Shown here: piece after piece, positions 1 through 62,035 of the stretch
Layout of the letters: the number at the start of each line of letters is the position of its first letter
Position numbering within the stretch: the first letter of the stretch is position 1
Assembly (NCBI GenBank): GCA_011033025.1
Contig: WFMF01000529.1
Location: 51,302 to 115,301, forward strand
DNA: 64,000 nt
Source of the DNA: Beroe forskalii
Lineage: Eukaryota > Ctenophora > Nuda > Beroida > Beroidae
Direction of reading: 5' to 3'
Program-made: the position numbers and the translations under genes
Notes under the pieces: model-generated
Databases searched by the model: none
Told to the model about the DNA's origin: nothing
The model's input: only the letters and a program-made list of their open reading frames with translations

Positions 1-1094
1 CCTCAGAAAGGTTATTGTCAAACATGGAATGACATTCCAATATCATAAAACGAAGGTGAAAGGATGAAATGATACGGCAGAGGGCATTGTTCAAAGGTCA
101 TGTGAGTAAATTAGATTTTAAGATAAGCCAATCTGGAGATAATTATAAATGATGGGGTATTTCAAATCATTAGGTGGAGGTTACTGGTTAATTAGGTTTG
201 GTTTGAAAGAAACATGACATAATTCATGGTCGCCAATGATTAGTATTGCAATTATTCAGTATTCTTTGGAATTCAGTCATGATTTCGCTTCAGTCATCAT
301 TATGTCATTTAATTTTACTCAAGATACTTATTGAACATTATCAGCGAAATGTCAAATTATCACTGCATCAAGTATTCACTACAGTCGAATTATGCTGCAG
401 TGAAAAAACAGTGGAATCCGATGTTTTGGATAATTTACAATCCATGATACAGGTATAGAAATCAGAGAAGCAACAAATTCGTAAAAGAGAGAAGATACAG
501 GGAAGCCACGAGCTCGTGACGTAAAGGAAACTATAAGTAGAAAGCCTCGAAACTGACCGGTAAACGGAAGCAACCGATAACCTCCGGAAGTAAGGGGTAA
601 AATGATAAGGATATTATGTGCCACAAGAAGCTTACCGCAAACAGATTGTATATAAGGGTATGATTCATGATATGTTCTAATGAGGGAAGCTAATGATAGT
701 ATGACATCATGCTAATGATTTGGGTAAAGCTGGATACGCCCTGGAGTCTACCTAGACAACAGCAGGGAATGAATTCTGAGGATTTTCCTCAGAGGAATAG
801 AAGTTGTGTAAAACCCGCGCCTGAAACAGGAGGTGCAACGTCATCAACTTACTACATTGCTCGAAGCCTATATGGATAGAGTGTCCGTTTAAATTTAATT
901 ATAATGATTGGATGATGGACAAGAGAGAAATTCACGCCGCAGCGCTGAAAAAGACTCTACCCCAAAGTAAAGAATCCAATACATCAACATACGTTGCAAG
1001 ATACTGGGATTCGAGCAAAATTGACAAATTCTCTGATACAATTACTCGGAGAAGTGCACTATTTAATGGCTTATGCTTGCCTCAGTGGACGTTG
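1..1094 (-). repeat. Long interspersed repeat, copy A (cut by window start)
   Basis: Its reverse complement matches 56676-57659 and 61168-61300 over its whole length at roughly 80-90% by eye. The match stops at GGACGTTG (1094). The frame at 379-624 (-) that looks conserved between the copies (LPLTSGGYRLLPFTGQF) is explained by the DNA repeat and is not evidence of a gene. It contains a half copy of the CRE-core palindrome at 832-880. Confidence 0.8.
832..880 (-). repeat. CRE-core palindrome, half copy in repeat A
   Basis: Has the CAACGTCATCAACTTACTAC arm and the ATTGCTC spacer; the TGACGTCA arm is lost. Its counterpart in copy B is at about 56893-56940. Confidence 0.5.
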
Positions 1095-2020
1095 TTCATG
1101 AAACTCGCCATTTCCATCGACAGTAAACATTCATTAACCATTTTATTGGGGTTTATTACAAAAGCTGTACACGAAAAATAGGTGGCTGAGACTGACATCA
1201 TTCACGACAGTTTTTATTGTAAAGTCTGATGAACTCAGACCGGCTATGATTCGGGGAGTGACTGACTCGAATATCTCAAAGCAGTTTACTCTGCCATTAC
1301 AATATCATATGTGCGTCAGAAAAGCACTCATTTCTTCCAATATGTATCGCTGGCACGGTACTTACCTACGTATGTAAAGTTTCAGGCGTTGTCTGGCAGA
1401 AGATACCTTGTATGTTGTAGAGTTTGCTTTGTATCGCTGGGGTGGGTCTGTCCTTATACACAAAGTATATTTCAGCCATTTTGGTGTATCAGAATTTTTC
1501 TCATATTTGATTATTTTGTTTTGAAGTATCTCATAACAAAAAAGACTGCCTCGATATCCAATATCTAAATTGTCTCTAACTTGTGTCCTTGGGAAATGGC
1601 TGTCTCTTGAACTACATTTTTCAACGCTGTACACCTTCTTTAATCGTTCATAAGTTTAGGCAAAGGCCATAGGGCATAGGTATTAGGTACTACCCACTAT
1701 CAAAGTATTAACTCATATTTAGATCATACTAAATTAGTACTTAATTCAAACGATATTTCATACCCCCACCCTTTTATTCGGTCATCAGTCCTTTGATAGG
1801 ATCATTCGTCTTGAATCATCAAAGTTCAATGCTCTATTGAAGTCTTGTGTTCCACAAATTGTCCATCGAGACACTGCACAATTACTGAAAAGATGGAAGC
1901 AATTCCTGTGACTTACGACTACGGATGGACATACTGGTCAAAATATATCAGTTACTTTTCCAAAGACAAACTCAGTTTGTGAGCCAGCTGTCAACTTCAG
2001 GAGTAATGAACACAAGTATC
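1095..2020. other. Non-coding, little seen
   Basis: Only a fragment of the palindromic repeat end (CACGAAAAATAGGTGGC, near 1174) stands out. The short open frames lack splice or codon support. Confidence 0.4.
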
Positions 2021-2023
2021 TAA

Positions 2024-2523
2024 GACCCGTTCTAGACAGGGATTTTTGAGGGGCTATAGCTCGAGCTATAGCTCGAGCAAGCCTGTCTAGAATGGGATTT
2101 TTCGCTGACCCCGGCTATAGTACCGGCTATAGGAGGGGTAATAGTTGGAGGTATTACCCCGGCTATAGCTCCGGCTATAGTTCGGGTCATCATTCCTGTC
2201 TAGAAAGCACTCTGACCCCAGCTATAGCTCTTTCTGATACACATGACCCTGTCACGTGGTGCGCGTCATGAAAACAACGCGAAATAGGAAGCAGATCGTA
2301 GTTACGCATCATCTCATTTGTTATTGTAACATTACACCTTTTTGCACACGTGACACTAGGCGTAAGCTGACAGGAGCTATAGCTCGAGCAACCCTGTCTA
2401 GAAAGAATTTTGTATCGGACGATATCCCGGGTCAGCGTAAAGGGTCATCCTGTATAGAAAGTAACTCTGACCCGAGCTATAGCTCGGGCTATAGCCCCTG
2501 AGAGCTCCTGTCTAGAACAGGTC
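2024..2523. mobile_element. Harbinger-like MITE rich in CTATAG palindromes
   Basis: 500 bp element flanked by TAA on both sides (2021-2023, 2524-2526), the 3-bp target duplication of PIF/Harbinger transposons. The inverted ends read GACCCGTTCTAGACAGG and, on the other strand, GACCTGTTCTAGACAGG. The interior repeats CGAGCTATAGCTCG and related palindromes many times. It has no ORF, so it is non-autonomous. Confidence 0.72.
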
Positions 2524-2591
2524 TAACTATGAACTGTTGGAATTTAATTTTCACTACTATTTATAACAGTGAGCTATTATATAGGTACCAT

Positions 2592-2677
2592 TAAACCGCC
2601 CTCTCTCTATCGACAAAATGCAAAGGTAGTCATCAATTCACAATTCTAAAACCTGATAATGACGTCACCCACCCCTG
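2592..2677 (-). repeat. CRE-core palindrome, spacer type b
   Basis: Keeps AAACCGCC, GTCATCAATTCAC, AATTCTAAAACC and an intact TGATAATGACGTCA. Confidence 0.6.
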
Positions 2678-4065
2678 TACCTACCCTACCTCTCCGCCGT
2701 TATGTCTGGTTTGTATGTTTGTGTGTCTGTGTCTGGTATTTGTGTGCAGTGCAGGGTGATCAGGGATCACACTGGAGGACACCTCTTAAAATTATATGTG
2801 GAGAGGGTTCACAATCTTCTTCACTGGATTGGATTACACTTCTGCTGCTGGGTGTAATGGGGATTTCCATTCAGTCATATATTTGATTATTATTTGACCG
2901 ACCCGGAGTTTTGAGGGCTTCTGGTGTACGTGTATCATTCGGATATGTTTGGTTTGATTCAGTGAAATTGGAACATTTTAGAAAATCTCTAGACCTAGAA
3001 TGCCTGGGGCGATTTTAAAACTGAGCTTGAAGCGTCAACGAATTTTTTTGAACTTTTAAAAAAACATTAATCTCTCATCTATCAATGTCCACTTTATTTG
3101 ATTCCAAATGATAGTGTTTTAATTCATGTTTTTCGTCATGATACTAGAATTAATTCACATTCCAATCACTCAACAGTGTTTACTAGTGTGACGAAATGTG
3201 TCAGTCTAGCGTAACCGGAGTTTTTACGTCTATCCGATGTGAATATCGTTGGGATGACGTCATTATCATTGCTCAAAGTGATGAATTGATGACGTTTGTC
3301 TGCCTGTTTCTGTGCAAAGGGTCTACAATCCCATGTGTGTAGGTATGTGTGTATGTGTAAGTTTTGAGTGAGTTATATTATGCTCAATGTATGTTAATGT
3401 GTGAGTTTTTGAGTGTGTTTATTTGAATGTGGCCAAGGACAAGCGCGCCTTCCTACCATCTGTTGAATGTGGTTTTATTAAACGTGTGTTTGTTTGTGGG
3501 TAGAGGCCATGGATTCTTCTACAAATTGATTTTTTCACAACGTTAAATATGAGGATTTTTCGTAAAATCGTTAAATTTCTTTTCCTAAAACTAATATTTC
3601 CAGCGAGGTATGCCTTGCTTCATACTAAACTACTCGTGATATATCTTGATTTATTTTACCTCATGATATTTTATATCTACTCCGATCCCTGATCAGTTGA
3701 CCTCTGATGATATCATTTATACTTGTACCATGGCTCTGATGTAGAAATGTCGGTATTCCGTTCTGCCGTGTCTAATTCCATTTGGTGACTGTACACGTCT
3801 GTTTAGAGCCAGGCACTGTCCCTTCTTGGGATAATACTCCTGTGGACCTCGGTCAATGCTATCTTTTCTATATTGTGATATATCTCAGCTTGTTTGGTTT
3901 GACTTCCATAACGTATCCTCCAAACCGGATGGTAATGATTTTAGGGCTGTTTGGTGGGATAATTTCACAGGCTTTTAGTCGACTTTTACTTCATGAATAT
4001 TCTTATCCATTGAATGTATTGAATATTTTATGATTCATTCAATTTAATTGGTTTTCGTTATGCAG
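2678..4065. other. Upstream of the 4066 exon
   Basis: A GT-rich, simple-sequence stretch at about 3330-3500, one CRE-core palindrome, and possibly one undetected 5' exon near 3430. Confidence 0.35.
3253..3318 (+). repeat. CRE-core palindrome
   Basis: GATGACGTCATTATCATTGC followed by GTGATGAATTGATGACGT; the outer end is worn. Confidence 0.65.
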
Positions 4066-7000
4066 TTCCCAGTTCCTTTGATTGCCTTGAACTCTTGAAA
4101 TCCATTCTTTGGCCCCACTGGTAAGTCATTTTACTTTATTTTGACTTTTGATTGGAAAATGTCATGGGTTCTGTAATCTGTACGTTGATTGGTATTGCTC
4201 TCCTTCATCCGGCAACATGATTGGTTGTCTTTTCTTTCTTCCTGCAAAGCTGCAACTTGATTGGCTGTCCTTCCTCCCTTCCTAATTTCCTGCAACCTGA
4301 TTGGCCGCTGTATCCTCCCGTGGGATTTCCTTCCTATGGCGGTAGAGTTACCAAAGAACTGTTGTTTGAGTACATCCTCATATATCCAACACCACAAAAT
4401 ATCGAATCTATGAAGAGGACTTTAATAACGAATATTGACTGATGTCATTATCATGATTTAGAATGATCATTTGGTTACTTGAACCAGCTTGTTATGCGCG
4501 TGTGTGATCCATGATGATTCCATAAACATCCCAAAATATTTCATAACATGTTTTCGTAAGATTATGTATGTATTATTCATGTTTTCTGTTTTGTTATGAT
4601 TTGTTTTGTTATTATAACCGGGCATAAATCTTAATAGTAATGGTTTGTGCTGTCATCAACCATGCATGCCATTATTATTATTATTAATTCCCCGTTCACT
4701 GGAAACGCAGCGTGCACAAGTTTTCACCTTTCAAGCTTTGTATAGTTTTATTAATAGTGATATTAGAATAAACTATATGTTTTAATTGTGCCTTAATAAT
4801 GTACCTAAATTGAGGAAGGTAAATGTTATTAAAGCATATCATGTTATACTTTCTGACGTATATGAGTATATGGTTAATGGTGGTCCGATGTATTCATAGC
4901 GACATCAGTAAGCAAACTGGTGATTTGTTCATAAATCAATGTCTTTACTAACCAGTCACTTTTACAATGACCCAGCAGCACGTGGGTTGACCCTTTTACC
5001 TCTGATTGGTCTGACGGCAGGTTCAAGACGGGTTTCAGTCATTTATTTTGGGTTTTAACTTTGGTGGAGTTTTTACTTTTTTAGGTTTTGCTCGGGTTGT
5101 GTCATATTTTCTTATTATCGTCAGGTTTTATTTTAAGACGGAATTTTACGAATTCGGCAGGAAATGTCGCGCTCTCGTGTGGCAGGATGTCTCTATGGGT
5201 AAGGTAACTAATACCTTGCTGACTCTAATGGACATGCATGTTAATCCCATTATACCCTTTTCGAGCAACATGTAAAACCATTACTCACTACTTCCACCCT
5301 TCTAGAAAACCACCGTTACTGTTTCTCTCTGTGTTTTTACAGACTTTACTCCGGGAAAATAGGCGGTTTTATGGCACCAATCCTCCATTTCAAACTACTA
5401 TGATGACGTCAATTCCCCTCGCATATTCTTAAAAGTTGTCTTTAATTGTGTAACCCTCATCAATTTGCCTTGCGTCTCTTGATCATTCGACCGATTAGCG
5501 CTGCCACCAGTTTAGCAGTTTGCTACCGTCTCATAGTATTCCACAAGACTGATAGCCACTTTGGATGATGTCATTAACATAGCTCCAAGTGATAAGCTGA
5601 TGACTTATTTCGCGCCTATTTTCGTGCACAGCTATTACTAGTCCAGGTTTTGTCGTATGCTCTGAATGGTGTGTGGAATCCATGGATTTTCTGCCAAGAT
5701 GCGTTCCTGAAGGTCGCCCTTTGATGCTTGACTTGTTGTCAATAAAATGTGAATAATGTTTGTGTTTGCATATTAGATTATGAACGGCATCTGTTTTTGT
5801 TTTTACACGAAATCTCCGAGTTTTTCTGTGTTTTGAATTGCATGTTGATGGATGATGAGGAATTCATTATGATTGGCGATGTTTGAATTCTATTAATCTG
5901 GATGAAGGGATTACAGATCATGATCGTTCTCTGATTGTTTCAGTTAACATTATATTGCACCGTCCTTTAATATAGGAGGGTTCACCATAATACCGGGTGT
6001 TTCAAAAAAGAAGACAATAATTGTAGAGCTCAATAACTCGGCCTGTATTTGGAGTTTTCTTATGAAATTTTGGGATGTCATAGATATAGGTACATCCGGT
6101 ATTATGTTTAAGACTTAAGTGTAAGCTTCGATGGTGGTATAGATCGTAGTGGCTCCTCGCTTACGCAATATCCCGAGATTCCTCAGTTTTGTGGTAGAAG
6201 CTGCCTTTGAACTTTTGATATTCGTCACTATCGTTTATGATGCTTCCCTCTGTATGTGACAATACTTGCTAAGAATCACACTGCGCCTAGCATTTGACAT
6301 CATGACTACGTCAATGAATTGCGTCTTCTGTGCATTTGAACCATTTCCTGCTTTTCTACTTTCTACAGACCTTTTTTGGTCAGATAAATCTTACTTCCTC
6401 ATGGATGCAATATCGAGGTCGAGAGAATCATGAGAAGGTTTGACCTTTTCTACGCCCTATTTTAAACTGCATCACTTTAAATAATCACAACTTGGCCTAT
6501 CTCATGTTTGAAATGCTCTTCTGAACCTAATTTTATTTTGCATTTTGCAATGCCTGCTTCGTCTTCAAGTGCTTATGTGTTAATGGGTTTTCCTCTTTCA
6601 TAGGTCAGTAATAATACTTTGATTTGACCATTAAAGGGTCGGGCACGTCGAAAAAACTAATGAAGTAATGAGCACAGTTCCGCCTCTTTCAATCTTCCAT
6701 TGAATGTGATTGTATAGTGTCGTGGTTTTTAGAAAATGATATAAGGACCTTATCAACGAAGTCTTTCTTATCAAAGTCTTTCTTCAACTAATTCTCTCCT
6801 CTCTCAAACCCTTACATATTGGGTACCTGCATTTATTCGTGGATTAAAACAGTCATTGTTTGTATCTTTAATAGTACAAAGTGGAATCAGGTCTATCTCT
6901 CCAATACTGATACTGCATAACCAGTGTATTTTGTGTTTGAATTGTGCTCCTTCAACTGAAATATAGTCATGTGCTATTGTGCTACGCTTTTCACCATTCC

Positions 7001-9079
7001 CTTTATTTCTATCTCCGCTTCCCTCGTGCAAATATGACAGAAATATGAGATATGATCACAATAGTGCATCACTTCTGTATTGTGGTTTTAGATATTGACA
7101 TGGTGCTTTCTATTCTTGTGGTTTTGGTTGCTTGTCTGCCTGCTTTTTGTTTTCATCTAAGTTTCGGGGGTTTGATCACTTTAATCCTGTCACGGGTTAT
7201 GATTTATCTCTCTTGTAGATTGTATTAAATACGGTTCATATATCGTCATCAGACACATGACGCTTTTCATAGCTTCGATACAGGTCACGCGTGAAAAATA
7301 TAAGTGTTGGAGCATGAATTCAATACGTTCATCCATGACATTGACAACCACTCTTAAACCGCCGCGCTCGAAAAATAGGCGGTTATCAACATCATCAACT
7401 TTCTGCAATACTGCATTGTGCTCTGATAATGACGTCATATTATCGCCTATATCTCGTGGGCGCGCTCATCAACTCTGCTAAATCCGTCCGTTTTTGTCTC
7501 ACACGACTTGTTGACCTCATCTCATCTTCCCCTCTTTTCCCACTTCTGATAAGAGTTGCGTATAACTTGTCCCACGCATGAGAGGATGGCGGATAAGATG
7601 TCGTCATTATGATAGCTTAATTAAGTAAATTGATGAAATTGAACCGCATACTCTTCGAGCGTGCCGCGTGGTGGTTTAAGCGTGGAATGGGGTTTAATAA
7701 TGAGTCCGGGTGCAATGTCAAAATGGTGCAGTAATTATCGACACACTTTTTATGAGCTTGCGTGTTCCACGTTACATAAATTCCAGTTGAATTCACTGGA
7801 GTTGTGTTACAAAATTGTGCAGAATCTGTGGAGTTTTCCCCATATTTCGTCGTGACATTTGGTCATGATTTGACGTTTTGACGAATTCTTTTGCATTGAA
7901 TCATGCTTTCGATTCTGTTTGGTCAGTAATTCGTAATTGTGATTTTATTTTTAGTCCTTCTGATTTAATATTTTGTGAATTGATTATAAAAGGGAATTTT
8001 ATGAAGTCACATGTCGCATATAATTTTGCTTCATTTGATACGGTCTTTTTATCTTCAAAGAATGCAAAATTTGTGCAATTTTGAAAGTGAACCATAACTT
8101 CTTATTCAGATGGTTCTTACAGTTGCGCCTTCTTTCGCTTAAATCATAGTTTTAATCAATTTCAATTGCTTCGCTGACGCCGTATTTGTATCATATCATT
8201 TTTAAATTCTTTTCCCCATTTTTCATTTATATCTTTGCTCTATGTTTATTCCATTCTATGCTCTATGTTGATTTCTTGTAACCGCCCAACAACACCAGTT
8301 CGTCCCAATGTTCCTACCACATCCCCCCATGATTGCTACTCCATCCTGTTGAGTGAATGGAGGGAGGGAGATATCACCATCATGTTTTATCAGACTTGTT
8401 TTCTGGGGGCGTCCTCCTGGTCACTCTACTCTACAGATGACAACCTCCTCAACAACTAGTGAGTATATTGTTTTGTAATAACGCATATGAGGGGCGAGGG
8501 CAGATCGTGATTCGTGCGATTTATGAACAAGCGCAAATGTTCTTGCGTCAACGTGGGTATAAAGTTTTGTGTTGTCGGGATTGTCCCCATCCTAAAAGAT
8601 GGGGATGGTTCCCTGTTGGGAACTTCCCGCACAGGGGCAATATGAACCTTCTTATGGCGAAACCGGGATACCTCTGATTCTTGGCGCGAGTTTTATTAAA
8701 TTTGTCTATTTGCGTCTTCCTGAAAAACTGACAAGTGGACCCCACTTACTTGACAGGTTGAATGTTTTACCGTTTACGATAACTTGAAATATTATTAATA
8801 AGAGAGGAATGATTTGTCAAGGTACTGCTTGTCAGGAGACCATATTTGGGGGATGTCAACGAAAAATAATATTTGGACGTTGGAGACAAAAATATTTGGA
8901 TATATTGATGCATCAATAATAAGACTGAGTTGTGGAGACAGTTCGTCAGCGTTTATCAGACGCAATTTTGGATCAGGCTTTGTGACCACCGCGATTCAGA
9001 AAGACCATTTCTCAATCACATGAGGAAACTTGTTTCTTCCCTCCTCAGCCCAAAGTATTTGCCAGTCTATCGACTTTAA
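4066..9079 (+). CDS. Unrecognised multi-exon gene, 3' part (four exons)
   Basis: Four exons can be read: 4066-4120, 5125-5198, 8299-8458 and 9049-9079. Every junction is GT-AG with a pyrimidine-rich acceptor, and the phases agree throughout (out 2, 1, 2; in 1, 2, 1). The roughly 106 residues readable include FDCLELLKSILWPHW, EFGRKCRALVWQDVSM and WREGDITIMFYQTC, and end in YPKYLPVYRL with TAA at 9077-9079. An ATTAAA at 9415-9420 could be the poly(A) signal. The 5' end is missing; a weak candidate exon (about 3430-3487, reading VAKDKRAFLPSVECGF) fits in phase but has a poor GTGTGT donor. The pieces are rich in aromatic residues and Cys, with no family motif I know. Several palindromic repeats sit in the 3.1 kb second intron. 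Gene existence is likely; function is unknown. Confidence 0.6.
4150..4304. promoter_or_regulatory. CCAAT array, five boxes
   Basis: GATTGG starts at 4150, 4187, 4219, 4259 and 4299, all on the same strand. The last three sit in a degenerate 40-bp unit containing TGCAACYTGATTGGC. It lies in the first visible intron of the 4066 gene. Confidence 0.55.
5354..5420 (-). repeat. Diverged CRE-core palindrome
   Basis: AAAATAGGCGGTTT on the left and TGATGACGTCA on the right; the middle is strongly changed. Confidence 0.4.
5574..5640 (+). repeat. CRE-core palindrome, mutated core
   Basis: GATGATGTCATTAACATAGC, then GTGATAAGCTGATGAC and CGCGCCTATTTTCGTGC. Confidence 0.55.
7361..7467 (-). repeat. CRE-core palindrome, near full length
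   Basis: Outer GCGCTCG and CGTGGGCGCG, inner AAATAGGCGGTT, CATCAACTTTC and TGATAATGACGTCAT, then TCGCCTAT. Confidence 0.7.
7586..7662 (+). repeat. CRE-core palindrome
   Basis: GGCGGATAAGATGTCGTCAT, ATGATAGCTTAATTAAG, AAATTGATGAAATTGAACCGC. The CRE has one change. Confidence 0.6.
8584..8636. other. Cluster of stem-loops
   Basis: TCCCCATC (8584-8591) pairs with GATGGGGA (8598-8605). GTTCCC (8608) pairs with GGGAAC (8618), or alternatively CCCTGT (8611) with ACAGGG (8631). It lies in the last intron of the 4066 gene. Confidence 0.4.
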
Positions 9080-10319
9080 ATTGTTCACCAATTTTCCTTT
9101 GATCACGTCTGTTAATGACTAATGAGCTATGCTTGTTCAGTGTTTCATGTTTGACATATCCTTCCATACCTTGGCGACTGAATGGCGACACTGGCATTGC
9201 TGGGAAACTTGGAATATGACTGCCAGTAATTACCAGGCAAAGTCAGCGATTTTTGGAATAATCAGGCAATTGTAATGGGCAATTTTCCATTAACTGGCGC
9301 GTATTTTATATCACATCTGGTTAATTTGACAAGCTTTTGTGCGTTTGAACTGCAGTCAATCATGAAATGATCGACCAAAATGCTAATTCATTTTTGCTCA
9401 ATTTCCAAATTATCATTAAACTGTAGAACGATGGATTTTAACTTGCACATGTAAAACGCTATGAGATTTTCTATAATTTCCTATCAAAATCACATACTCA
9501 TACCCATGCTCAGGTCCTGTCAGCTGTCATCTTGAATTTATCGATGTAAATCGTATTTTATATTAATCGTGAATCGGTATGGTGACCATGTCTGTCGTTC
9601 ATGTCTCGGAAAGCTGGACATCAGCTAGGTGATCTGCGCTCATTTTCCACTTTTTGTTTTCACAAATTACTATTTATCCATGTGTAGCTTACCAAATAAC
9701 CGATTTTTGAATATTTGTATATCGATCAGAATCGCAATAGCCAAAGACAATGACCAGGTTTTGTACAAATGCTATCAGTGAAAGATAGGCGATTCCAGGT
9801 TAACGATTACTTACTTTTAATCATTGTCAAGGCACCACTCTCAACCGCATTCTGTTCTAGTACAGCCTATTAAATACAATAATTGGTAAATCCCTCTTTT
9901 CCACATAAATGTTCTAGTACATAACAGGTTAATTATGGCTACTATTTTCTTGAGAGAAAACAAAACTTCGTAGCTAGCCATGGACTAAAATGTTTCTTTC
10001 GTTTCCTTAAAAGATTCGTTTCTTCCTTGAAAGCCGTCCGTTAAAATGTTATCAGCCAAGTACATCTTGTCACTTATCCACCTCATCAGTGAACTAATTT
10101 AAAAATCTTTTTGAACCTCTTGAACCATCTTGAAAGTCTTCAAACCCTTTTTAAACCTTTTGAACCATTTCAAAACCCCATTTAACTGACAAAAAGCTAC
10201 CTGTTGACGAATGACACGCGTTTGTCTACCTGAGTCCTGAATACCTGATAAACGTGTAAATAGGGGTGAAGTCCAGATGAGGATCTCATCTTCAGATGGT
10301 TAAGTGCATGAAGTATAAA

Positions 10320-10400
10320 GTAGGCGATTATGGTAAGGACTTCACTGACGTCATTATCAAGGTTTATAACAGTGACTTGCCGATGATGAATCGCAGCTAC
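10320..10400 (+). repeat. CRE-core palindrome, diverged
   Basis: ATAGGCGAT-like left end (TAGGCGATTATGG), intact TGACGTCATTATCA, weak right arm. Confidence 0.5.
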
Positions 10401-12599: not shown

Positions 12600-13932
12600 T
12601 ATACTCCTAGCTATGTAGATCGCAGTGAGCAAGGTATCAGGTTGACACACGCTGTGTACTGACGCTTCTGTGGTGGATCTATACTGATGATGTACGACGG
12701 TAGGACGGTCGTCTATGATTTTAGACTGCCTTCTATGGTTGTAGTCTGCCGTCTTAGATTGTAGATGACAGTCTACTTGGATTGAAGATGACAGCTTGAC
12801 TAGTCTATTTTTACTTGTTCGGGCTGCTTCAGATGAACAATGTCGTTTTATTGGTTTTTGACGCCCCTGCTTTCACTCGTTTATCAACGTCTACATTACC
12901 CTATCTTTGGCTTGTTACATGAATTGCAATTGAGATTGATAATCTCTCGGATTTTCACTGTCATTGACACTGCCAGACTCAGATTTGATGATTTGAAATG
13001 CATTTCATGTTGACTATGATGATGTCATGCTCTTATTTTCTATGTGGTGGTTGTGGTGGCTCACTGTGCTTTACTCTCCTGACAACACAGCGGCTATTAC
13101 TCCAAGTAGAACTATACGGCCAACAGACGACAGTGTACAAATATAGTCTAGTTCTCGTAGAACTGGTTGATTTTGATGTTGTTTAGTGATTTGGATTTTG
13201 TAGTAGTGATGAAAACACTGTTTAGGGTGTTTGTGACCTCGGGAAATGAGAATAATTCTGAAATTTCCGACGCAATAAGTACGTTCGTCGTTATACTGTT
13301 ACTATACTTATATTAATCAGTATCACGTACGTACGCATAGTGGTTATGTGGAAATTACAGAGGGTCAGAGGGCGTTCTTTAAAACTCGTGACATCTACTC
13401 AATCAAAGTTCTCGTTGTGTTTTAATGCTTTTGATAAGTCAAATCTTAGGATACAGCCGCCATTATTAATGCATAATGCACTGTCAGCAGCTGTACTGCT
13501 ATTGTAATTTATCCTCCTTTTGGCATGATGTCTTTCCTAGTTTCCTTTTGAAAGAGAGACACAAAGAGATGGGCAGAGAGACCTCGTTTGTCATATGAAG
13601 GATGCCATTAATGGACCGTTCCTCATATGATGGGTGTCTCACAAAGTAATATATACGATTGAAGGTGACGTTGTGACCGTGATTTAAGCTAGTCTGTAGC
13701 TGCTTCTTTTTGTATGCGGCACACTTTAAAATGGCTAGAGTGTGCGATTTACAGCAACCTACTGAAGCAGGACTTTGTTGTATACCAATCTGAGTAATAT
13801 ATCTCGAATTTGCCCATATAAGGAATAATTAGTTCGCCATGTTACAGTTCATGTGTACATTAGAATTGACAGAGTGTCCCTGCAAGCATAGTAGGCATTT
13901 CAGCGTCGTTAATGCGCTACTTTAAGCTATGA
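12600..13932. other. Non-coding
   Basis: Near 12690-12790 a degenerate run of TAGACTGCCTTCTATGG, TAGTCTGCCGTCTTAGA and TAGATGACAGTCTAC looks like an old short tandem array. Nothing else. Confidence 0.4.
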
Positions 13933-14910
13933 TTTTTTTTTTATTTCAAAATTCAAATTTTACATGAAATATATTTTACAATGTCATTCAGGTTAAAACA
14001 TTGTGTCTTTCCTACTTAGCCAAAATAGCACAGTAAAATATAAATCAAGTGCAAAATCTGGGCTAAACTCCCAACACAGCGTTAACCATTTTTACAGGGA
14101 GGCCCGTCATAAACATCAATCAATATATATGTTATAGAATAAATAATAACAATATTAATAAGTAATTATGTCATCTGATAAAATTAAATCACAAACTCAC
14201 AAATTTGGTAAATTAACCAAAAATTGAAATAATATGGTTGTCAATTGTAATCATATATTGGTATTTAAATTGTCACTTTTGAACAGACCTAGACCACAAC
14301 TTACTTTTCTGCATCAAGACCATCATTTCGAAAAATACGAATTTAGAAAATTTCGTGAGTAAGGGTATGTTTGCTCTTGCCTTATGACTTAATAACCATC
14401 CAGTTCCTAGACCGAACCAATTAAATTAATCGGGCCAATCTAGATCTGCTTTCCAGAGGAAAGTTTTGAGTTGTGATTTAAAGGTGGAGATGCTTTTAAC
14501 TTGCCTGATACTATAAGGGATTTTGTTCCATATGACCATTGTTCTACAGAAAAATGAATTCCTAAAGTTATCACAATTAAGCCTTATGGTACATTTTAAT
14601 CTCGAACAATCCTCTTTGCTTCCAATATCATTTGTACTTCTGGTGCTCCTCACTTCAGTATGTTAAATGATATGAAAGCCTTCTGGTAAGGTGATGGGGA
14701 TGAGAGAGTGTATGATTTTGAACATCATGATTAGGTTAGTTATGATAAATTTGTGTTTTATTGGAGGGATATTCAAGGTTTTCAGTTTATTGTAGTATTC
14801 AGTATCACAGATATGGTCATGGGGACGGCCTTCAATCCACTTAACGGCCCGTTTTTGGATGGCTTCAAAACCACTGAGCTGGTTGATGACATCATCTTTC
14901 GAATAAAGAT
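13933..14910 (-). mobile_element. LINE 3' end (non-LTR retrotransposon), 5'-truncated
   Basis: On the minus strand about 14663-14905 reads SKDDVINQLSGFEAIQKRAVKWI and NLIMMFKIIHSL, the C-terminal end of a LINE reverse-transcriptase ORF (Jockey/CR1 group in style). A frame shift near 14655 leads into 14653-14426, reading RNSFFCRTMVIWNKIPYSIR and FKSQLKTFLW, then a stop. A 3' UTR follows, ending at a T10 on the plus strand (13933-13942), which is the poly(A) tail. The 5' side is cut at about 14.9 kb, as is usual for LINEs. Confidence 0.78.
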
Positions 14911-15859: not shown

Positions 15860-16034
15860 GTGCAACCACTGCTTGACAAGCTTGTAGAGAATATATTAAA
15901 TATTATATGGTGGTCTCTCCTCCTCCTTAAAATACTGTATTTCCTCGGCCGACTTACTGGGGCAGGGACAGACTCACACGAAGTTTTACAGAGTTTTAGT
16001 CCGACTATAACAATCGCTTGATAGAACATATGGT

Positions 16035-16110
16035 GGTTGGGAGTGACGTCATTACCATGTGTTTGAATAGTAATTTGATCTCGTTGAATGGCGTACTTTT
16101 CATGAGCGAG
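16035..16110 (+). repeat. CRE-core palindrome
   Basis: GTGGTTGGGAGTGACGTCAT and, after a type b-like spacer, AATTTGATCTCGTTGAATGGC. Confidence 0.55.
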
Positions 16111-16550
16111 AGTATAGCAGTGTTGAGCCACCATGCCATTGTCTCGCCGTGCTAGTTCACCGACTTGATCTTAGATTTGTATCGTTTTTTGTTTGGAATA
16201 TTCAGCTCTTGAAAAAGTTTGTTTTAGATTTTGTCGCATTTCGTTTTTATTAAAACTAACATTTGATACTCAACTTCGCTGTAATTTCGCGATGGTGGCA
16301 CAATTATTGTGGTGTTGTTTCATCGGTTTTTGGACCACAAAGGAACTGAAATCTAAATTTGTATGAATTGTATTTCTAAAATTGTCCATTATTCAATTTT
16401 CGTTGGTAATTATTAAATGGTTTTACAGTTTGGTTAAGAAAGCGTGCAATAGGATTTTGGTGGTTCCTTTTAGGTTCTTTACCGTCGAATTACAGCAAAC
16501 ATTCTAAATAAATCGAGCGGATTCGGCATTCTTGAGACGTTCCTAACATA

Positions 16551-19015: not shown

Positions 19016-19019
19016 CTTT

Positions 19020-41016: not shown

Positions 41017-41060
41017 GTGACGTCATTATCATAGCTTAGAATGGTGAATTGTTTACGTTA
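41017..41060 (+). repeat. CRE-core palindrome, ends lost
   Basis: TGACGTCATTATCATAGCTT, AGAATGGTGAATTGTTTACG. Confidence 0.6.
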
Positions 41061-41128
41061 TAATTTCATATCGGAGATTGATATCTCTGCTACTCATGTT
41101 ACGGTTGAATTCAGAGTCACTCGCATGT

Positions 41129-41964: not shown

Positions 41965-42039
41965 CACGAGAAATAGACGTCATTATCTGAGCACAATGTA
42001 GAGAGTTGATGACGTTTAACCACCAATATTTTTGTGTGC
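41965..42039 (+). repeat. CRE-core palindrome, type a
   Basis: CACGAGAAATAGACGTCATT, GAGTTGATGACGTTTAACC, TATTTTTGTGTGC. Confidence 0.65.
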
Positions 42040-43265: not shown

Positions 43266-43345
43266 CGTGCAAAAATACAAATAATAATGTCATCAACTCA
43301 CCATGCAAAACTATGATAATTACGTCATGATTTTAGCTGCCGAAT
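43266..43345 (-). repeat. CRE-core palindrome
   Basis: GTGCAAAAATAC, TGTCATCAACTCACCATGC, ACTATGATAATTACGTCATG. Confidence 0.55.
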
Positions 43346-43474
43346 ACTCAATACATGCAGCTCAAACGATACATATATGCATTCTTTTGAACCTTGATAA
43401 AGGCCCAATTATAATCAAGATAATATATGGTGCTGTATGATGTAATTGTGTAATTAAACTGTAACCTCTAAACT

Positions 43475-43563
43475 CCCACGCTTAAAATAGGTGGTGTGAC
43501 GTCATTAACTTACTATATTGCGCTATGATAATGACGTCATCACAACCACATATTTCCCTCGAG
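43475..43563 (-). repeat. CRE-core palindrome with two intact CREs
   Basis: Both arms keep TGACGTCA: GGTGTGACGTCATTAAC and CTATGATAATGACGTCATC, with the type a spacer TTACTATATTGCG. Confidence 0.7.
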
Positions 43564-44204
43564 GGCACATTGTTATATATTGACGCGCGAGCCACCATGG
43601 TGGTATGGTTTAACAGCATGGTGGTACCATTGGTACTCCATTATGAATTTGACATGGTTTTAACAACAGTTGGTACTTTCTTGATTAACATTACCACCAT
43701 CTGTGTTTGTTATGCCCAGGAAACGCTGTCAGCCACACCTTCTGTTTTTGGCTTCATGCTCCAGAATTAGAAAGTAGCTGAAGAATTAGAAATTAGAAAT
43801 CGAGAGTAGCCGTAGAATTTATATATTTGAAACTTGTCCCTTTGTTATGTTTCACTTATATTTTCTGTTGATTAGCCATATACCGCACGCCCTCTTTTTC
43901 AATGTTATTCAATCAATTATAGATTCTATCATGATATTTTGTTGTACTCTTCTCTTTCGATTGAGATTACCCCACCCGATTTAATGAGACCATGCAATTT
44001 AAAAGGTCCAATAAGGGATCTTAACTTGGGACACCAGTGTGCGAACATGCTTCATTTTCACATCTCAGATAATGTGAAGATTTCAACCCATTATCCTCAT
44101 AATATTTCCCATAATGGACCTTTTAATCTCCCCTAGAAACCAACCTACGTACTACTATTAAATGATTTTAACTCTTTAAAATGCTGAGTAAAAGGCGAGA
44201 CTCT

Positions 44205-44245
44205 GTCATCAAATTATCTCTTTAAACCATGATAATGACGTACTT
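44205..44245 (-). repeat. CRE-core palindrome, partial type b
   Basis: GTCATCAAATTATCTC, TTTAAACCATGATAATGACG. Confidence 0.5.
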
Positions 44246-44823
44246 TCAATCACTTACTCCTCACTCTGAACTTTTGATTGTGTCTCTCAGACTGTGTCCC
44301 AAAGAATCACGCGCTCTTTCTTACCAAACACGCTGAACCTTTGAAACTTTCTGTTGTTGTTAACTCACCGGTTGTCTGTACTCTCAGCCATGTAGAATCT
44401 TATTGTCACTCGCAAATGGGAGAATTCAGACTACGTAGTTGTGATAGTTTGCGCTCGGAAGTTTATTAAGCTGTCTGTACAAGCTAACCTAACACATTTT
44501 GGTCAAAACTTGACACAGTTTGGCTCAGTACTTGGAAACGCACAAACAGCTCTTAGAAGTTGGGAAATTAGTCTGTAAAAAGTTTCCTTCAATTAAATGC
44601 CAGTTTTCCACTCTTCCAGTCTGTCCATGTGTGAACTACCAGTCACAATGAAGCAATGTTGTTACTTTTCCTGGGCGTTTCCCGGTAGACTACGTCTTAT
44701 GAGTTAGAATTTCTTGGTTCCGTTTTGACGGCTTATTAAACTGTCTTATTTCCTTCATGTTTCCAATTTCACCGGAGTTTATACATGAGATCCCGCAGAA
44801 TAAGCAGTTACTAGCTAATATGC

Positions 44824-44915
44824 CGCACACTAGAAATAGGCGGTTAAAATAACGTCATTGTCATAGCGCAATGTAGTGAGTTGACGACGTCACACCGCCT
44901 ATTTTTGGTGCGTGG
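44824..44915 (+). repeat. CRE-core palindrome, full-length reference copy
   Basis: Inverted ends CGCACACTAGAAATAGGCGG and, on the other strand, CCCACGCACCAAAAATAGGC. The inside reads AACGTCATTGTCATAGCG and AGTGAGTTGACGACGTCAC. Confidence 0.75.
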
Positions 44916-45353
44916 GATATATGTCAGGGTGTCTCCAAGGCAGTCATTATCTTGGAACGGTTTAGAGAGCTGAAAACCCTCGCTTAATGGTTTATTACAT
45001 CCACCAAGAACATATATATTCGTTGCGTTTTTGAGCTGATCTTCAAGTCTGGTTTTATCTTAGCTTGGAATGATAACTTTCTTTATCTTGCTAATGAACT
45101 TCACTGTAGGCAGAAAATCAGAAGCAATTCCTTTTTATCTTCCTATGACTCAGCAGAAGGATTCGGTCAGTCTTTTTTCTCCATTTGAGGACGCAAATCT
45201 CGGTTAAAGTGTTATCAAGTGTTAAGACTTCAGAGTATGCCATGCGGCCTTCACAGGGTATTTTCATTAATCAGAGCTCACCCTGAAGTTCATTTGCAAG
45301 AGTGAGCATGATTAATGACTTCAGGATATGGAACATTGCCAAGCAGTCAGTGT

Positions 45354-45655: not shown

Positions 45656-46204
45656 GCATTATATCATGGAAATCATGTATTTTCTAACGGATGATGGTTT
45701 TCAGTGCTGATTATCTATGAATAGTGAATAGTCTATTGATAGCTTCCAATTATTTTGTAGTTTAGTGATATTATTATTATTCCGTTGATATGAGATCATA
45801 CATTTGTCATGTGTTAGACTCCGCTTATCACCTCGTACAAACACATTTTAAATGCTATTTTCAACGTGATATAGAGCGTTAAAACAGTCACTGAGTCATA
45901 AACTTCCGATTGGTCTTATGATAACCTCAGCTCATTTCTCAATTTGCATTCACTGTGCTTCTTCACTTAATTTGCTTGCCAAGTAAATGGGGCTTGTTAT
46001 TTACTCTCATTGTTTTGTTGATCAGTTATTTCTTATTGCACCTGTGAAAGCTTGAAACCATAGCAACCATAGCATGTTTCTCATTTCCTGAGTGAGCTAG
46101 CTTCCTGTGATGGGTTCCGCTGTTTAATAATGCATATCATGCATATTAATACACGAGCAGATTTAATGCAGGCATCAGAGGTTGCCATTGAGGAATATAG
46201 GTTG

Positions 46205-46275
46205 TTTAACGTCATCAACGCACCACTCTAAACCATGATAATGACGTCATGTTCCTTTTTATTTCGTGCACATAA
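46205..46275 (-). repeat. CRE-core palindrome, type b
   Basis: TTTAACGTCATCAACGCACC, CTAAACCATGATAATGACGT, TTTTTATTTCGTGCAC. Confidence 0.7.
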
Positions 46276-46382
46276 ACCTTATACGAGCAGCAGATGATTT
46301 ATAGCATGCTTGATCAATCCTCTGTGATATTCGGTGTTACTACTGCGTTAATTAATCTGTTCTCTCATAGTAAGTCTTAGTG

Positions 46383-46445
46383 AGTGACGTCATTATCATA
46401 GATTAAAGTATACAATTGCTGATGTTAATCTGCTTACCCGCACTC
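46383..46445 (+). repeat. CRE-core palindrome
   Basis: GAGTGACGTCATTATCATAG, ATACAATTGCTGATGTTAAT. Confidence 0.6.
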
Positions 46446-47779
46446 TGAAGACAGATGTTGCTGTGCTGAGTGCTGTGTATAATCAGCCGTGTAATTTATT
46501 CACAGCACAGCAGTAGTTGCCAGTGTGCTTTGCAGGATTGCTCCAGCGTTTTGTGAACAAGTTGTATAGCAGCCCTTTATTTCAGATCTACCTCTTTCAT
46601 CTAGCCTAATTTTATGCTTATGAGCCTTCTTGATGTCACCATTCCTACTCATGGTACTTGAGTTTCGTTCTGAGGGATTTCTTGTACATTTCGGACTTGA
46701 ATTTTGAGCAGTTTAAAGGAGTTGCGCGCGAGACCACGAAGTTTTGCATTTGTTTTCACACTGACTTCATGGTTGCTTCATATGTTAGATCACCATATTG
46801 TTCTGCTTCTGAGGTTTTGTAGCTCGTCCCTAGAAGAACCATTTCTCCATTTCCATTTAAAACCACAATCACGTGTTCCTGGCTGAGCTGGTCATTAAGT
46901 TCGCCAAATACCATTTTGTTGAGATCCTCTGTATGTCATTTCACGCTCATTCCTACACAACTATATGATGTTGTTGTTGTTTTATATTAACAGGTAGGTG
47001 TCAAAAGTAGCACGGAGCCACCAAATATATTCCCTTAAATAGACTAATGCAGTACGATGCTGAGATGCTTGGAGAGGAGAATGAGAGGGGGCAATATATA
47101 TTTCAACTTCTCGCTATTGTAGGATTTTACTCTTCGATATACTCGCAAAATACCTTCCTAAAGTCAATCTTGAAGAGTACTTTGTGGCGTTTTTGAGGTT
47201 TTTTTGTGGTCCTTTGTTTCAAAAAATCAAACCTTTGTTTTTGGTGGTGTTGGAGGGTCTATGGCGTTAAGAAAACGTGTCCTGTCCTGTTTCTACCTTG
47301 ATTCATGTGAGTAAATAACGTGTTCTTGCTGATGTTGGTTTATCCGGGTTTAAATAATTAAATATTACGGAGTGAAGCGAAGTTAAAGTCCTATGTTGAC
47401 CTCTACGGAAACAAATCCTCCAGATGACAAATGCGCTCATTATTATGACGCCATTTTTGCAAGGTTGCAGCAAGGTTCTTGAGGATCCTGAAATTAACTT
47501 TCTGTTTCGGAATCTCAAGTATGTACGGTTCGAATGACTCATATTGTCACGTGATCCGTGGCCAATTACGTTACAAAACCAAAAGGTCCAAAGTTTAATT
47601 ATATTTCTCACCGGCTAAACTGAGTCATTTGCTTTTGTGTTGCGTTTAACTATGTATGTATTTGAATATCTCAGCATTAGATTTTATTAAAATTCTGTAT
47701 GCTTGTAAGTTTTGTAGGTGCATCTCTGCTTATAATTATCGTTATTAATCAATACTCCCACGGGACATGGTAACATTGA

Positions 47780-47847: not shown

Positions 47848-47959
47848 ACGTGCAGTATATTCAGTACACTATGAAATACAGTTCTCCCAGGTGGTATCAA
47901 GCTGAGCCTGATATTACGCAGCGTGTAGTCAACAGAGACAACTCAGAAGTTAAAATCCG

Positions 47960-48032
47960 TTAAAATGACGTCATTATCTTAGAATAACGTAGTCAATTAA
48001 TGATGCTGAACTGCGTATTTTGCTGCAGATAG
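47960..48032 (+). repeat. CRE-core palindrome, type a
   Basis: AAATGACGTCATTATCTTAG, GTAGTCAATTAATGATGCTG, GCGTATTTTGCTGCAG. Confidence 0.6.
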
Positions 48033-49252
48033 CCCCATGTAATGATACAAACACACATAATAACATATGTTTGAATATGTGAGGGGATATTAGGTACTTG
48101 GTATGTGGATATGAATCAGCTTGTACACAGTCTAGTTCACCTATTATTATAGTCTCTCTATCGATATACTACTGATGAAGATGGTGATCTCAGGATCTCC
48201 ATTTAAAAGTAGTTACAACAGATCAGTACACATCCAGAAACCAGAGAGATTTGTACGGTCTTCGTTTTGGTGGTAGTTCAGTGAGAGCCTACCTTCGTCA
48301 TGGATTTGTGAAATGAAAATCAATCAGTCACGAGAAAAAATTTTCTCTTTAGCAGAAAATGAGCTTCATATAATACAGCTGACTAATGCAATCGAGCATT
48401 GAATCTTGATGCGTGTACATTCTAACTCATCCACTGACAAATCAAAGCCATCCTCGAATGTTATTTCCCAAAATTAAAAGCCCCAAAGCACGCAGATCTT
48501 ATCATTTGTCTCATTAACTGACCAATAGGACGCCATGATATATTTTACAATCCTAATGATGCTCTCTCTGTAAAATATATTTTCATTTTAAGTCTGGGAG
48601 ATTTAAATATATTTTAATAGAAATATCATAGAAATATCAATGCATATTTCAAATATGCGTGGGTTGTACATATCACACTGAATTTAACATATTGTAATCT
48701 TATCACCACTCCTCCAGTTATCAAATTACTTTTCACAGCTCCAGTTTTTCATTTTTCCTTACATTACACACACCTCATGAGCCTAAAACAGCGTTATAAT
48801 ACGTAAATGTTATTCAGCTATACTCGCGGGTTTTAATTATTGTACTCTTTCCGTTAGATATAATATTTTTTATAAAATAAAGATTTTGTTAAAAACTTAT
48901 GATTCGTGAAGTTTAATTGTTTTGGCCACCGCAGCAGTATTTTTAATAAATGCACGTGGGCAGCTATATCAGCAAGCACAATTCTCAATCAATAACAGAC
49001 GTTCATATCGTTGATACTAGTAACTTGTTAACAGTTCTCGCGTCTTTAAATCAGTTTTTCTTTTCGATATTATTTTCCATCGTTCTGCAATCCGTATTGT
49101 TCTCCCAGTGTCAAAAACTGCTCATAGCCTTCCCGTTTTCCTTTTTCTTTTTTGACCAACAAAAAGCACAAAATTCCCTGCTCTTCTCGATCATTTGTTA
49201 AAATGTTGTCCGTTTCTGCAATATCTCCCCCCTCTTCCCAGAATCAGATGCA

Positions 49253-60154: not shown

Positions 60155-60480
60155 TAATATAGAGATATAGTTCTATAAAAGTATAAATTTGACGCGCAGA
60201 TGTTTCATTTCCACAAAAATCATCAAATAATTCGGTCTTTGAACTGGTTTTTGGCTCATGATTGAATTGGCATTAACCCAAATATAATACCTATCCCATT
60301 TTCAATTGGCATCCTTTTTTCCTACTTATAGGTACAGTAGGTACCTATAAGCTCACCCCACAGTGTGAAAAATTGCGTTTATTTATCTCAATGTAGCAAT
60401 TTCCTGTTGAAAAAGCATTAGAGAATCTTCGAACTCCTCCCTTGTGTAACATGATGAACACACTTTATACGTAGGTGCTT

Positions 60481-60548
60481 AGGATAGGCGGTTGGCATGA
60501 CGGCACCATTGTGAATCCAAGCAGTAAATCAATGACGTTGACTGTACA
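60481..60548 (+). repeat. CRE-core palindrome inside the 3.5-kb element
   Basis: GGATAGGCGGTTGGCATGAC, AGTAAATCAATGACGTTGAC. Confidence 0.5.
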
Positions 60549-60663
60549 TGGGTATTATATGCAATAATGTGGTGTTCCAATTAAGCAGGTTGCAACTTTA
60601 TCCCTATCTAAACATCCAAAACCTTTGGGAGATCAGACACTCGTGATACTAATTATATACAAG

Positions 60664-60712
60664 GCAGTTTAACGTCATCAACATGTGACTTCAGTTGTGA
60701 AAGTGACGAAAT
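60664..60712 (-). repeat. CRE-core palindrome, worn, inside the 3.5-kb element
   Basis: GTTTAACGTCATCAACATG, TTGTGAAAGTGACGAAAT. Confidence 0.4.
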
Positions 60713-61946
60713 TCAATTGTACAAAACTTGTGTGCGATGTAATTTTCAATTCCGTGTATGCGTTTGTATTTGCTCATAACTCCGTAGGGCTAATCTATTT
60801 ATATCACTGATTCAATGCTTCGCGCTCTTTGATCTTACGGAACGTGATTGAAATAATTGCTGAATACCGCAAGTTTATGCCGGTAATTATAATGCGCAAT
60901 TAGAGGATATCACATATCAGACTTGTGGCGGTGGATAAAAACGTCCACCTTCAGTTTTAAGCCCTTTTTTGCGGGTAATTAATTTAAATTAGGCGTAATT
61001 AATTAACTATATGTGGTAGAGTTTTAGCTTATGTTTCAACGCACTCAAGAAAGATAGAACGGAGGATACTGAAAAGGCCATGCTACTGTTACTTATAATA
61101 GTCGAGTTATGAGCCGTCAAAGTTGAATTTGGATAAACCTATCCACATATTGGCTGAATACTGTTAAGAGATTCTAATCTCAAAATCTAATTAACTCACT
61201 TGGCCTTTGCACAATGATTTTCGCAGTATCAATCCATCCTTCCGCCTTCGTTTCATGATGATGGTATGTCACTGCAGGATTAGCAATAACCTTTCTGAGG
61301 AATCTATCGCCATTGACAAAAAGACACATACCAAGTACATTACACTCCCACATTTGCAAATGTATACATTCCTAGGCCCGCAGTAACTCGTCTCACATTC
61401 CTATCATTGCTGTAATCTAATTATCTCAAATCATTCGATTATCTCCTCTAACCTCAAGTCCATGTGTCCCAGAGATACAGATTTTCATTTGTAGATCGCA
61501 TGATTTTGTCTCACCTTGAATTTTGTCCGTTTACCGATATTTTGTAATCTGTGTTGTATGCAATACTTTTTTTTCTTTTTGAACATTTTTCGATGACCTG
61601 ATTTTCTCAGGGGCATGGAATCAAACCGATTCCATGATTTAATGCCCAGTACTATCGTCACTAAAATACAGTAAATGTGCGTCATTCCATTGTCGAAACA
61701 GTTCCTGACGTCACCATTTCTCTCTCCACTCTCCTCACTTCTGATTGCTATTGCAACGAATGTGATAATACAGGCAAGATTTAGATTCACTCCTCTCTTT
61801 CTTACATTCGTAACAGTTCCATATCATGCCTGACGTCACCATAACTCACTTCACTCTCTTCACGGGGGGAATTACCAACAAAATCATGTAAATCATGAAA
61901 TCCCGTAATTCCATTATCTAATGTACTTCCTATATGGACCGTGGAC

Positions 61947-62035
61947 GATAAATAGGCGTTTGAAAGTGACGTAATTATCATTATTTAGAATGGTGTTCTG
62001 ATTGCGTTGAACCGCCTATTTTTAATGTTCGGAGG
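61947..62035 (+). repeat. CRE-core palindrome, near full length, type b
   Basis: GATAAATAGGCGTTTG, AGTGACGTAATTATCATTAT, TAGAATGGTGTTCTGATTG, AACCGCCTATTTTTAATG. Confidence 0.7.

What the first reader, a model, noticed from the sequence alone, without database searches (positions are those of the whole stretch)
832..62035. An approximately 85-bp palindromic element with a CREB/ATF core occurs about 40 times
By eye I count about 40 copies, in both orientations. Each is little more than two arms: AAATAGGCGGTT then TGACGTCATTATCAT, a spacer, and TTGATGACGTTGAACCGCC then TATTTT with CGCGC-like outer ends. This is a MITE reduced almost to its terminal repeats. Its most conserved inner block is a perfect CRE (TGACGTCA), which is the binding site of bZIP factors. 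Amplification may have seeded a CRE network, or the palindrome may serve an unknown transposase.
Basis: partly seen in the sequence, partly recalled or inferred. Interest (0 to 1): 0.85.

Follow-up and report, generated by a model that had tools for sequence, protein, structure and literature searches.

The report
Old MITE family with CRE-like core
The window holds about 40 mostly eroded copies of a roughly 100-base hairpin-shaped jumping element that occurs thousands of times in this unnamed, probably animal, genome; its best-kept part is a 14-15 base sequence resembling a CRE beside a GATA site, which also sits inside two differently built jumping elements, and whether the host uses these sites is untested.

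Summary
A profile built from the window finds 40 copies there (E<1e-3), in both orientations. TGACGTCATTATCAT has 4,260 exact sites in the 216-Mb host genome against 1 for the reversed control. Intact copies are ~100-bp palindromes (TIR about TTAWACGCCGCGCGCGAGAAATAGGCGGTT); the one folded as DNA gives a hairpin at z = -12. This is a non-coding MITE family ("A"), with a sister ("B") sharing ends and left arm.

The CRE reading is partly supported. In a leave-block-out test the best-kept unit is the whole core (0.80), with GATA-like TTATCA kept as well as TGACGTCA; right arm 0.72, inner TIRs 0.51-0.58, outer TIRs 0.39-0.50, spacer 0.46-0.59. Unexpectedly, two abundant elements with other ends, F2 (TIR ACCTTAGGAGG) and F3 (GGTATGTGTCCC, 8-bp target duplications), carry the same 15-mer with no detected similarity around it. 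Whether single copies are kept for their core is open: in 22 F2 copies, changes seen in one copy only are as frequent in the core as in flanks. Most likely: a MITE family whose core is an element-level binding module (host factor or transposase) shared among MITEs. No autonomous partner was searched for genome-wide; no occupancy data exist.

The parts
816..859 (-). family A, right-arm fragment (inside one arm of a ~1-kb inverted repeat)
   Evidence: nhmmer
2626..2672 (-). family A copy
   Evidence: nhmmer
3231..3323 (+). family A copy, core exact
4431..4513 (+). family A copy
5342..5443 (-). family A copy, R-TIR exact
5542..5623 (+). family A copy
7358..7463 (-). family A copy
7572..7664 (+). 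family A copy
10306..10396 (+). family A copy
13877..13933 (-). family A fragment, core lost
16018..16117 (+). family A copy
19697..19774 (-). family A copy
22234..22302 (+). family A copy
23040..23125 (+). family A copy (GGTTTAGA subtype)
23929..24005 (-). family A copy, part of a 35-bp tandem duplication of the core module
23997..24052 (-). second tandem unit of the core module
24987..25080 (-). family A copy
25191..25288 (-). family A copy, core exact
25612..25670 (+). family A copy
26780..26885 (-). family A copy
27057..27123 (+). family A copy
27148..27217 (+). family B copy (same TIRs, other interior), 81% identity
   Evidence: blastn
31078..31174 (+). family A copy
32807..32886 (-). family A copy
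34034..34123 (-). family A copy, core eroded
34714..34784 (+). family A copy
38057..38129 (-). family A copy
38797..38892 (-). family A copy, core exact
39184..39283 (+). family A copy, core exact
39899..39999 (+). family A copy, core exact
40994..41062 (+). family A module, core exact, TIRs not above the null
41959..42045 (+). family A copy
43260..43350 (-). family A copy
43467..43574 (-). family A copy with a CRE in both arms
44177..44270 (-). family A copy
44816..44922 (+). best-scoring family A copy of the window
   Evidence: 69.6 bits
45559..45664 (+). family A copy
46184..46254 (-). family A copy, core exact
46360..46447 (+). family A copy, core exact; shares 23 bp exactly with F3
47942..48036 (+). 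family A copy
61934..62033 (+). family A copy, R-TIR exact

Best explanation
The copies are an old MITE family: ~100-bp non-coding palindromes with TIRs of about TTAWACGCCGCGCGCGAGAAATAGGCGGTT, presumably cut and pasted in trans by a transposase that recognises the ends at TA-containing targets (inferred). The inner 14-15 bp (TGACGTCATTATCA) lies inside the outer TIRs and is a fixed module of the elements: its TGACGTCATTA part is shared by family A and sister B, and the whole 15-mer is found in two MITE-like elements with different ends (F2, F3). I infer that it is a protein-binding site working at the level of the element: most likely a site for a host bZIP (CRE half) plus a GATA-like factor that keeps the element transcribed or in open chromatin where transposition can occur. 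After insertion copies decay; about half of the window copies have no detectable right TIR while the core is still readable, and core units were sometimes amplified as ~36-bp tandem repeats.
For: Copy number and specificity; TIRs and sister family B; TA at matching positions outside both ends in 7 of 15 distinct copies with both outer ends readable (by eye); DNA hairpin z = -12 for the one intact copy folded. 0 of 16 window ORFs scanned has a transposase domain. Core kept best: leave-block-out identity 0.80 against 0.72 (R-arm), 0.58 and 0.51 (inner TIRs), 0.50 and 0.39 (outer TIRs), 0.46 and 0.59 (spacer); joint intact 11-mer counts core/R-arm 666, core/R-TIR 497, R-arm/R-TIR 308, each reversed control 0; core 11-mer intact in 42 of 69 copies selected by L-TIR and R-arm (by eye). 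Same 15-mer in F2 (15 of the 22 printed of 120 copies found by flanks only) and F3. Right flanks of F2 and F3 score like random DNA against A (P 0.25-1.0), while 53 of 56 A-like controls have P<0.01; with the core masked, A and F2 or F3 share no stretch at E<=1 on either strand. Tandem ~36-bp units in L018, L013 and window 23959-24029.
Against: No autonomous element or transposase was identified, and none was searched for genome-wide. TSDs of A are not resolved (no direct-repeat signal). The core excess in A is modest; subfamily differences and ungapped extension at the ends lower the TIR and spacer figures, and in 24 TIR-exact copies the exact 15-mer core (9) is no commoner than the exact 11-bp R-arm (11). 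Copies of B lack the R-arm and so inflate the core/R-TIR count. In F2 the core is not clearly kept better than flanks. 8 of 9 fetched B copies lack the TTATCA half. The names bZIP/CRE and GATA are recalled motif knowledge, not a test.
Confidence: 0.55

Rival explanations
1. Plain MITE: the core is a subterminal binding site of the transposase that moves A and B, as with internal repeats of P, hAT or IR/DR elements (recalled); no host role.
For: In A an ACGTCAT motif sits in both arms in inverted orientation (left ATGACGTCATTA, right arm reversed AACGTCATCAA); A and B share the TIR plus the TGACGTCATTA segment.
Against: F2 and F3 have other TIRs, and F3 has 8-bp TSDs in 3 of 4 displayed loci with both ends readable, so another transposase is expected, yet they carry the same 15-mer; in F3 the two CTGAGTGACGTCA sites are direct, not inverted; in F2 the core is single and central.
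Confidence: 0.3
2. Host-co-opted CRE network: many copies act as regulatory sites and are kept by selection.
For: Core more conserved than TIR and spacer in window and C1 copies; CpG of the core kept in 28 of 36 window copies, without a comparison to other CpGs; clustering of exact cores; in F2, core divergence 4.2% against 9.3% and 10.9% in left and right flanks over all columns; precedent in C. elegans (PMC9757741).
Against: The F2 difference vanishes without six subfamily-diagnostic columns (4.1% in flanks) and for changes seen in one copy only (7 of 330 against 18 of 809, P 1.0; 4 of 315 against 17 of 772, P 0.47, without one rearranged copy); only 14 of 36 window copies keep the 14-bp composite intact; no expression, chromatin or cross-species data.
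Confidence: 0.15
3. Capture: a fragment of abundant family A was picked up by the ancestors of F2 and F3; its sequence has no function.
For: F3 shares 23 bp exactly with one window copy of A; a further candidate, F4, turned out to be an A module in reverse orientation; A is very abundant, and tandem units show that the module is copied without TIRs.
Against: The shared stretch is limited to about the 15-mer; no R-arm or TIR of A was detected in F2 or F3. Two independent captures of just this segment are improbable without selection for it.
Confidence: 0.25

Closest known systems
CERP2 / CELE2 MITEs and the HIM-17 motif pair in Caenorhabditis (PMC9757741; abstract and passages seen)
   Same: Short palindromic MITEs carrying a paired protein-binding motif in their inverted repeats, seeded thousands of times.
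   Different: There binding and promoter use are shown by ChIP-seq and reporters, and the factor is a THAP protein related to a transposase; the two MITEs are called related. Here the motif is CRE/GATA-like, nothing is shown experimentally, and carriers F2 and F3 have other ends.
Tc1/mariner-type MITEs such as Stowaway (recalled; PMC6881990 seen only in a search listing)
   Same: Non-coding palindromes with TIRs; TA next to the ends.
   Different: The TIR is GC-rich and not one I recall; no transposase found; duplication of TA not provable because TA is palindromic and flanks are eroded.
MITEs that carry transcription-factor sites in plants (LHY/RVE case PMC13102513, search listing only; E2F case recalled)
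   Same: A transcription-factor-like motif carried by MITEs.
   Different: Different motif and host; here host use is untested.

Membership tests
MITE | Short (<~600 bp), non-coding | tested here: met
   A full copy is 97 bp between the CGCC...GGCG ends, too short to encode a transposase.
MITE | Terminal inverted repeats | tested here: met
   TIR of about 25-30 bp in 16 copies with both outer ends readable; hairpin z -11.96 for one copy.
MITE | High copy number, dispersed, both orientations | tested here: met
   4,260 exact cores genome-wide (all carriers), 113 elements with both inner TIRs intact; 21 + and 15 - in window.
MITE | Target-site duplication | tested here: inconclusive
   No significant direct repeat; TA at the same offset on both sides in 7 of 15.
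MITE | Autonomous partner sharing the ends | not tested
Tc1/mariner superfamily | DDE transposase of the family with these ends | not tested
   Not searched genome-wide; none among 16 window ORFs scanned.
CREB/ATF regulatory network | Canonical CRE in copies | tested here: met
   TGACGTCA intact in 19 of 36 anchored copies.
CREB/ATF regulatory network | Sites retained better than surrounding element | tested here: inconclusive
   Modestly in A; in F2 it depends on how subfamily columns are treated.
CREB/ATF regulatory network | bZIP occupancy or effect on expression | not testable with these tools
   No ChIP, ATAC or RNA data.

The most novel reading that the evidence does not exclude
A composite CRE-GATA module of 14-15 bp has been built into, or passed between, at least three MITE lineages with different ends (A/B, F2, F3) because a host bZIP/GATA factor pair favours their mobilisation, so that unrelated transposons have jointly sown thousands of identical composite regulatory sites in one genome.
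Probability: 0.25. Interest if true: 0.75.

Novelty: new member of a known kind. Interest (0 to 1): 0.42.

Why it matters
By itself it is one more old, abundant MITE family. What lifts it is that the same 15-mer recurs in elements with different ends. By a simple count (about 400 start positions over 4^15, equal base frequencies) a given 200-bp family would carry it by chance in about 1 of 2.7 million cases. If the module binds a host factor, this genome would allow a direct test of whether transposons converge on a shared regulatory site and seed a network.

Tried and rejected
Rfam scan of the window at gathering thresholds: 0 matches. tRNA scan: 0. TSD search for A by pairing flanks: no signal. 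F4 (L121, L122; palindrome GATAATGACGTCATTATC, 48 places) was first taken as a further unrelated carrier and dropped: its left flank is the A module in reverse; one search had missed this because it looked at right flanks only. The first block-masking test was replaced, because masked models can align the palindrome in the wrong orientation. Near copies in the window are slightly more alike than distant ones (0.534 against 0.498, permutation P 0.032): weak support for local hopping. Literature: 'TGACGTCATTATCA' / 'TGATAATGACGTCA' 0 papers; 'miniature inverted-repeat' with 'TGACGTCA' 0; with 'CREB' 10, none on this by the listed titles; five-term search 0; 'sponge genome' with MITE and transposable elements 2, neither describes such an element in its listed title and abstract start. 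The host could not be named; an animal is inferred, weakly, from an fn3 ORF, a homeodomain ORF and a LINE-type ORF.

Rows dropped before counts: controls leave out 12 of 68 exact-core contexts (F2 4, F3 5, F4 2, L091); searches use 36 of the 40 window hits (score >=25 bits, core match >=10 of 15); one search uses 53 of the 54 exact cores listed on C1 (one of a tandem pair left out), all carriers together; one search uses 26, and searches use 24, of the 40 fetched TIR-exact copies (family B, duplicates, indel copies and two reversed copies left out); the TA count drops duplicate L036. In one search, 4 of 10 F3 loci were not located by my string and were not used.

Changed on checking: the statement that the F2 core decays as fast as its flanks was too strong (it rested on dropping six columns after the fact); it now reads inconclusive (one search added), and the host-network rival went from 0.12 to 0.15 for that reason.
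Full report
Observation. The window belongs to a 216-Mb eukaryotic assembly (contig C613) that is held without a name. Starting from seed copies found as repeats, an nhmmer profile finds 40 window hits at E<1e-3 (listed). TGACGTCA alone occurs 22 times against 0.79 expected. Genome-wide the 15-mer TGACGTCATTATCAT has 4,260 exact sites; its reversal has 1. The finding is not chance and not confined to the window.

Anatomy. 113 elements have both inner TIR 11-mers intact (AATAGGCGGTT...AACCGCCTATT, control 0; about half of them are listed). Among the 40 I fetched, 9 are family B, which shares TIRs and the TGACGTCATTA segment but has another interior (GTGCGCGCTGCCAAATTGTTGAAAAT); the others are family A or variants of it, the window type (AATAGGCGGTT NNNA TGACGTCATTATCAT AGCnCAATGTAGTGAG TTGATGACGTT G AACCGCCTATT). 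Flanks show a GC-rich outer TIR, CGCCGCGCRCGAGA. Aligned ends read YTAWW|CGCC...GGCG|TWTAA, with TA at the same offset on both sides in 7 of 15 distinct copies with both outer ends readable (by eye). One intact copy (L034) folds as a DNA hairpin at -44.5 kcal/mol, z = -12. No longer TSD is detectable.

Age and distribution. In the window 19 of 36 copies show a right TIR at 9 or more of 13 matches (mean 8.7 against 6.1-6.3 in flanks shifted by 30 and 45 bp); in the rest the TIR is eroded or absent. Twenty 10-kb stretches spread over contig C1 gave 25 hits, some weak (19 when the seven units of one tandem array count once), unevenly: L013 has 9, and 12 of the 20 have none. Extrapolated from this one contig, that is of the order of 20,000 copies genome-wide; the window is five to seven times denser. 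Exact 15-mers of C1, all carriers together, are clustered (53 sites, 19 gaps under 5 kb; mean 5.2 and maximum 13 in 10,000 simulations). Core units also occur as ~36-bp tandem repeats (L018, L013, window 23959-24029).

Is the CRE block special? I scored each copy of the window and the C1 stretches without the block in question and then measured that block (rest score >=10 bits, 31-59 copies per block): TGACGTCA 0.82, TTATCA 0.84, core 15-mer 0.80, TTGATGACGTT 0.72, R-TIR 0.58, L-TIR 0.51, outer TIRs 0.50 and 0.39, spacer 0.46 and 0.59. Ends are extended without gaps, which lowers the TIR figures, and subfamily differences lower the spacer. Jointly intact 11-mers genome-wide: core with R-arm 666, core with R-TIR 497 (some of family B included), R-arm with R-TIR 308, L-TIR with R-TIR 113 (B included), L-TIR with R-arm 69. 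If all blocks decayed alike these would be equal; solved pairwise, the core is intact 1.6 times as often as the R-arm and 2.2 times as often as the R-TIR. L-TIR counts are low partly because a subfamily reads AATAGGCGGGT (L071, L074, L117). In the 69 copies chosen by L-TIR and R-arm, the core 11-mer is intact in 42 (by eye). In 24 TIR-exact copies, core identity is 0.93 (TGACGTCA 0.93, TTATCA 0.94), R-arm 0.88, spacer 0.73; exact 15-bp core 9 of 24, exact 11-bp R-arm 11 of 24. So the core is kept better, modestly, and the kept unit is CRE plus TTATCA, not the CRE alone. TTATCA is the reverse complement of TGATAA, a GATA-type site; this and the CRE name are recalled motif knowledge.

The same core elsewhere. 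Of 68 exact-core contexts on C1 and C2, 56 are A-like, and 53 of these have an A-type right flank at P<0.01. The others are F2 (4), F3 (5), F4 (2) and one unassigned (L091). F2 is a separate element (TIR ACCTTAGGAGG...CCTCCTAAGGT); the 40 best of 1,052 candidates were scored and are 97-99% identical to a 76-bp query without the core, so it has recent copies, though a 72% match in L028 shows older ones too. F3 has ends GGTATGTGTCCCATATAAC...GTTATATGGGACACTAGCC, 8-bp duplications in 3 of 4 displayed loci with both ends readable (L129, L131, L132; not L138; by eye) and two CTGAGTGACGTCA sites in direct orientation; the 40 best of 1,389 candidates are 97-100% identical to a 91-bp query that includes the core, and matches in the C1 stretches are 82-98%. 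Right flanks of the core in F2 and F3 do not resemble A, and with the core masked no stretch is shared at E<=1. F4 was withdrawn: it is an A module in reverse. Against full independence, F3 and one window copy of A share 23 bp exactly, so capture of a short A segment remains possible.

Are single copies kept for the core? In the 22 printed of 120 F2 copies selected by flanks only, 15 keep the exact 15-mer and 20 keep TGACGTCA. Over all columns the core diverges 4.2% (14 of 330) against 9.3% and 10.9% in the left and right flanks; without six subfamily-diagnostic columns the flanks fall to 4.1% (28 of 681). Changes found in one copy only are 7 of 330 in the core and 18 of 809 in the flanks (P 1.0), or 4 of 315 and 17 of 772 without one rearranged copy (P 0.47). 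This neither shows nor excludes selection on single sites. What is clear is that the 15-mer belongs to F2's own consensus.

Interpretation. Shown: a MITE-like family, its sister, its copy number, clustering, modest core retention, and the core in two other elements. Inferred: movement in trans by a transposase using TA targets; the core as a binding site at element level; bZIP/GATA as the binder. The closest precedent is CERP2/CELE2 with HIM-17 in C. elegans (PMC9757741; abstract and passages seen), where a MITE-borne motif pair is bound by a transposase-related factor and drives germline promoters. No paper in the library searched holds this 14-mer in either orientation.

Noticed in passing
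window 146-1094 and 56676-57646: A ~1-kb repeat in inverted orientation, 85% identical, with no Pfam domain at E<=0.01 in the three ORFs scanned; it carries a fragment of family A in both arms.
   Followed up: partly
window 51683-51918: About 15 tandem copies of a 16-bp unit CTGGTGTCAGGGCTAA.
   Followed up: no
window 58226-59167: Degenerate cluster of CTGTCGTAGTACTGTCGCATGATG-type repeats.
   Followed up: no
window 55513-56313: ORF with a homeodomain (Pfam E 2.3e-9).
   Followed up: no
window 61706 and 61831: Two CREs (CCTGACGTCACCAT) in a local 125-bp-spaced duplication unrelated to the MITE.
   Followed up: no
L018:4173-4426: Seven head-to-tail ~36-bp units, TGACGTCATTATCAGGAGTTAGAATGGAGAATAGAG, the core module as a minisatellite.
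   Followed up: partly
L129, L131, L132: F3: element with CCCTAA-like (telomere-like) degenerate arrays between its ends and 8-bp target duplications.
   Followed up: partly
L024:6973-9999: Long tandem repeat open in more than one frame (SSNSTLAGSDTRGPARDSHPTLHLQVQTHE-like units).
   Followed up: no
window 62742-63024: About three tandem copies of an 88-bp unit.
   Followed up: no
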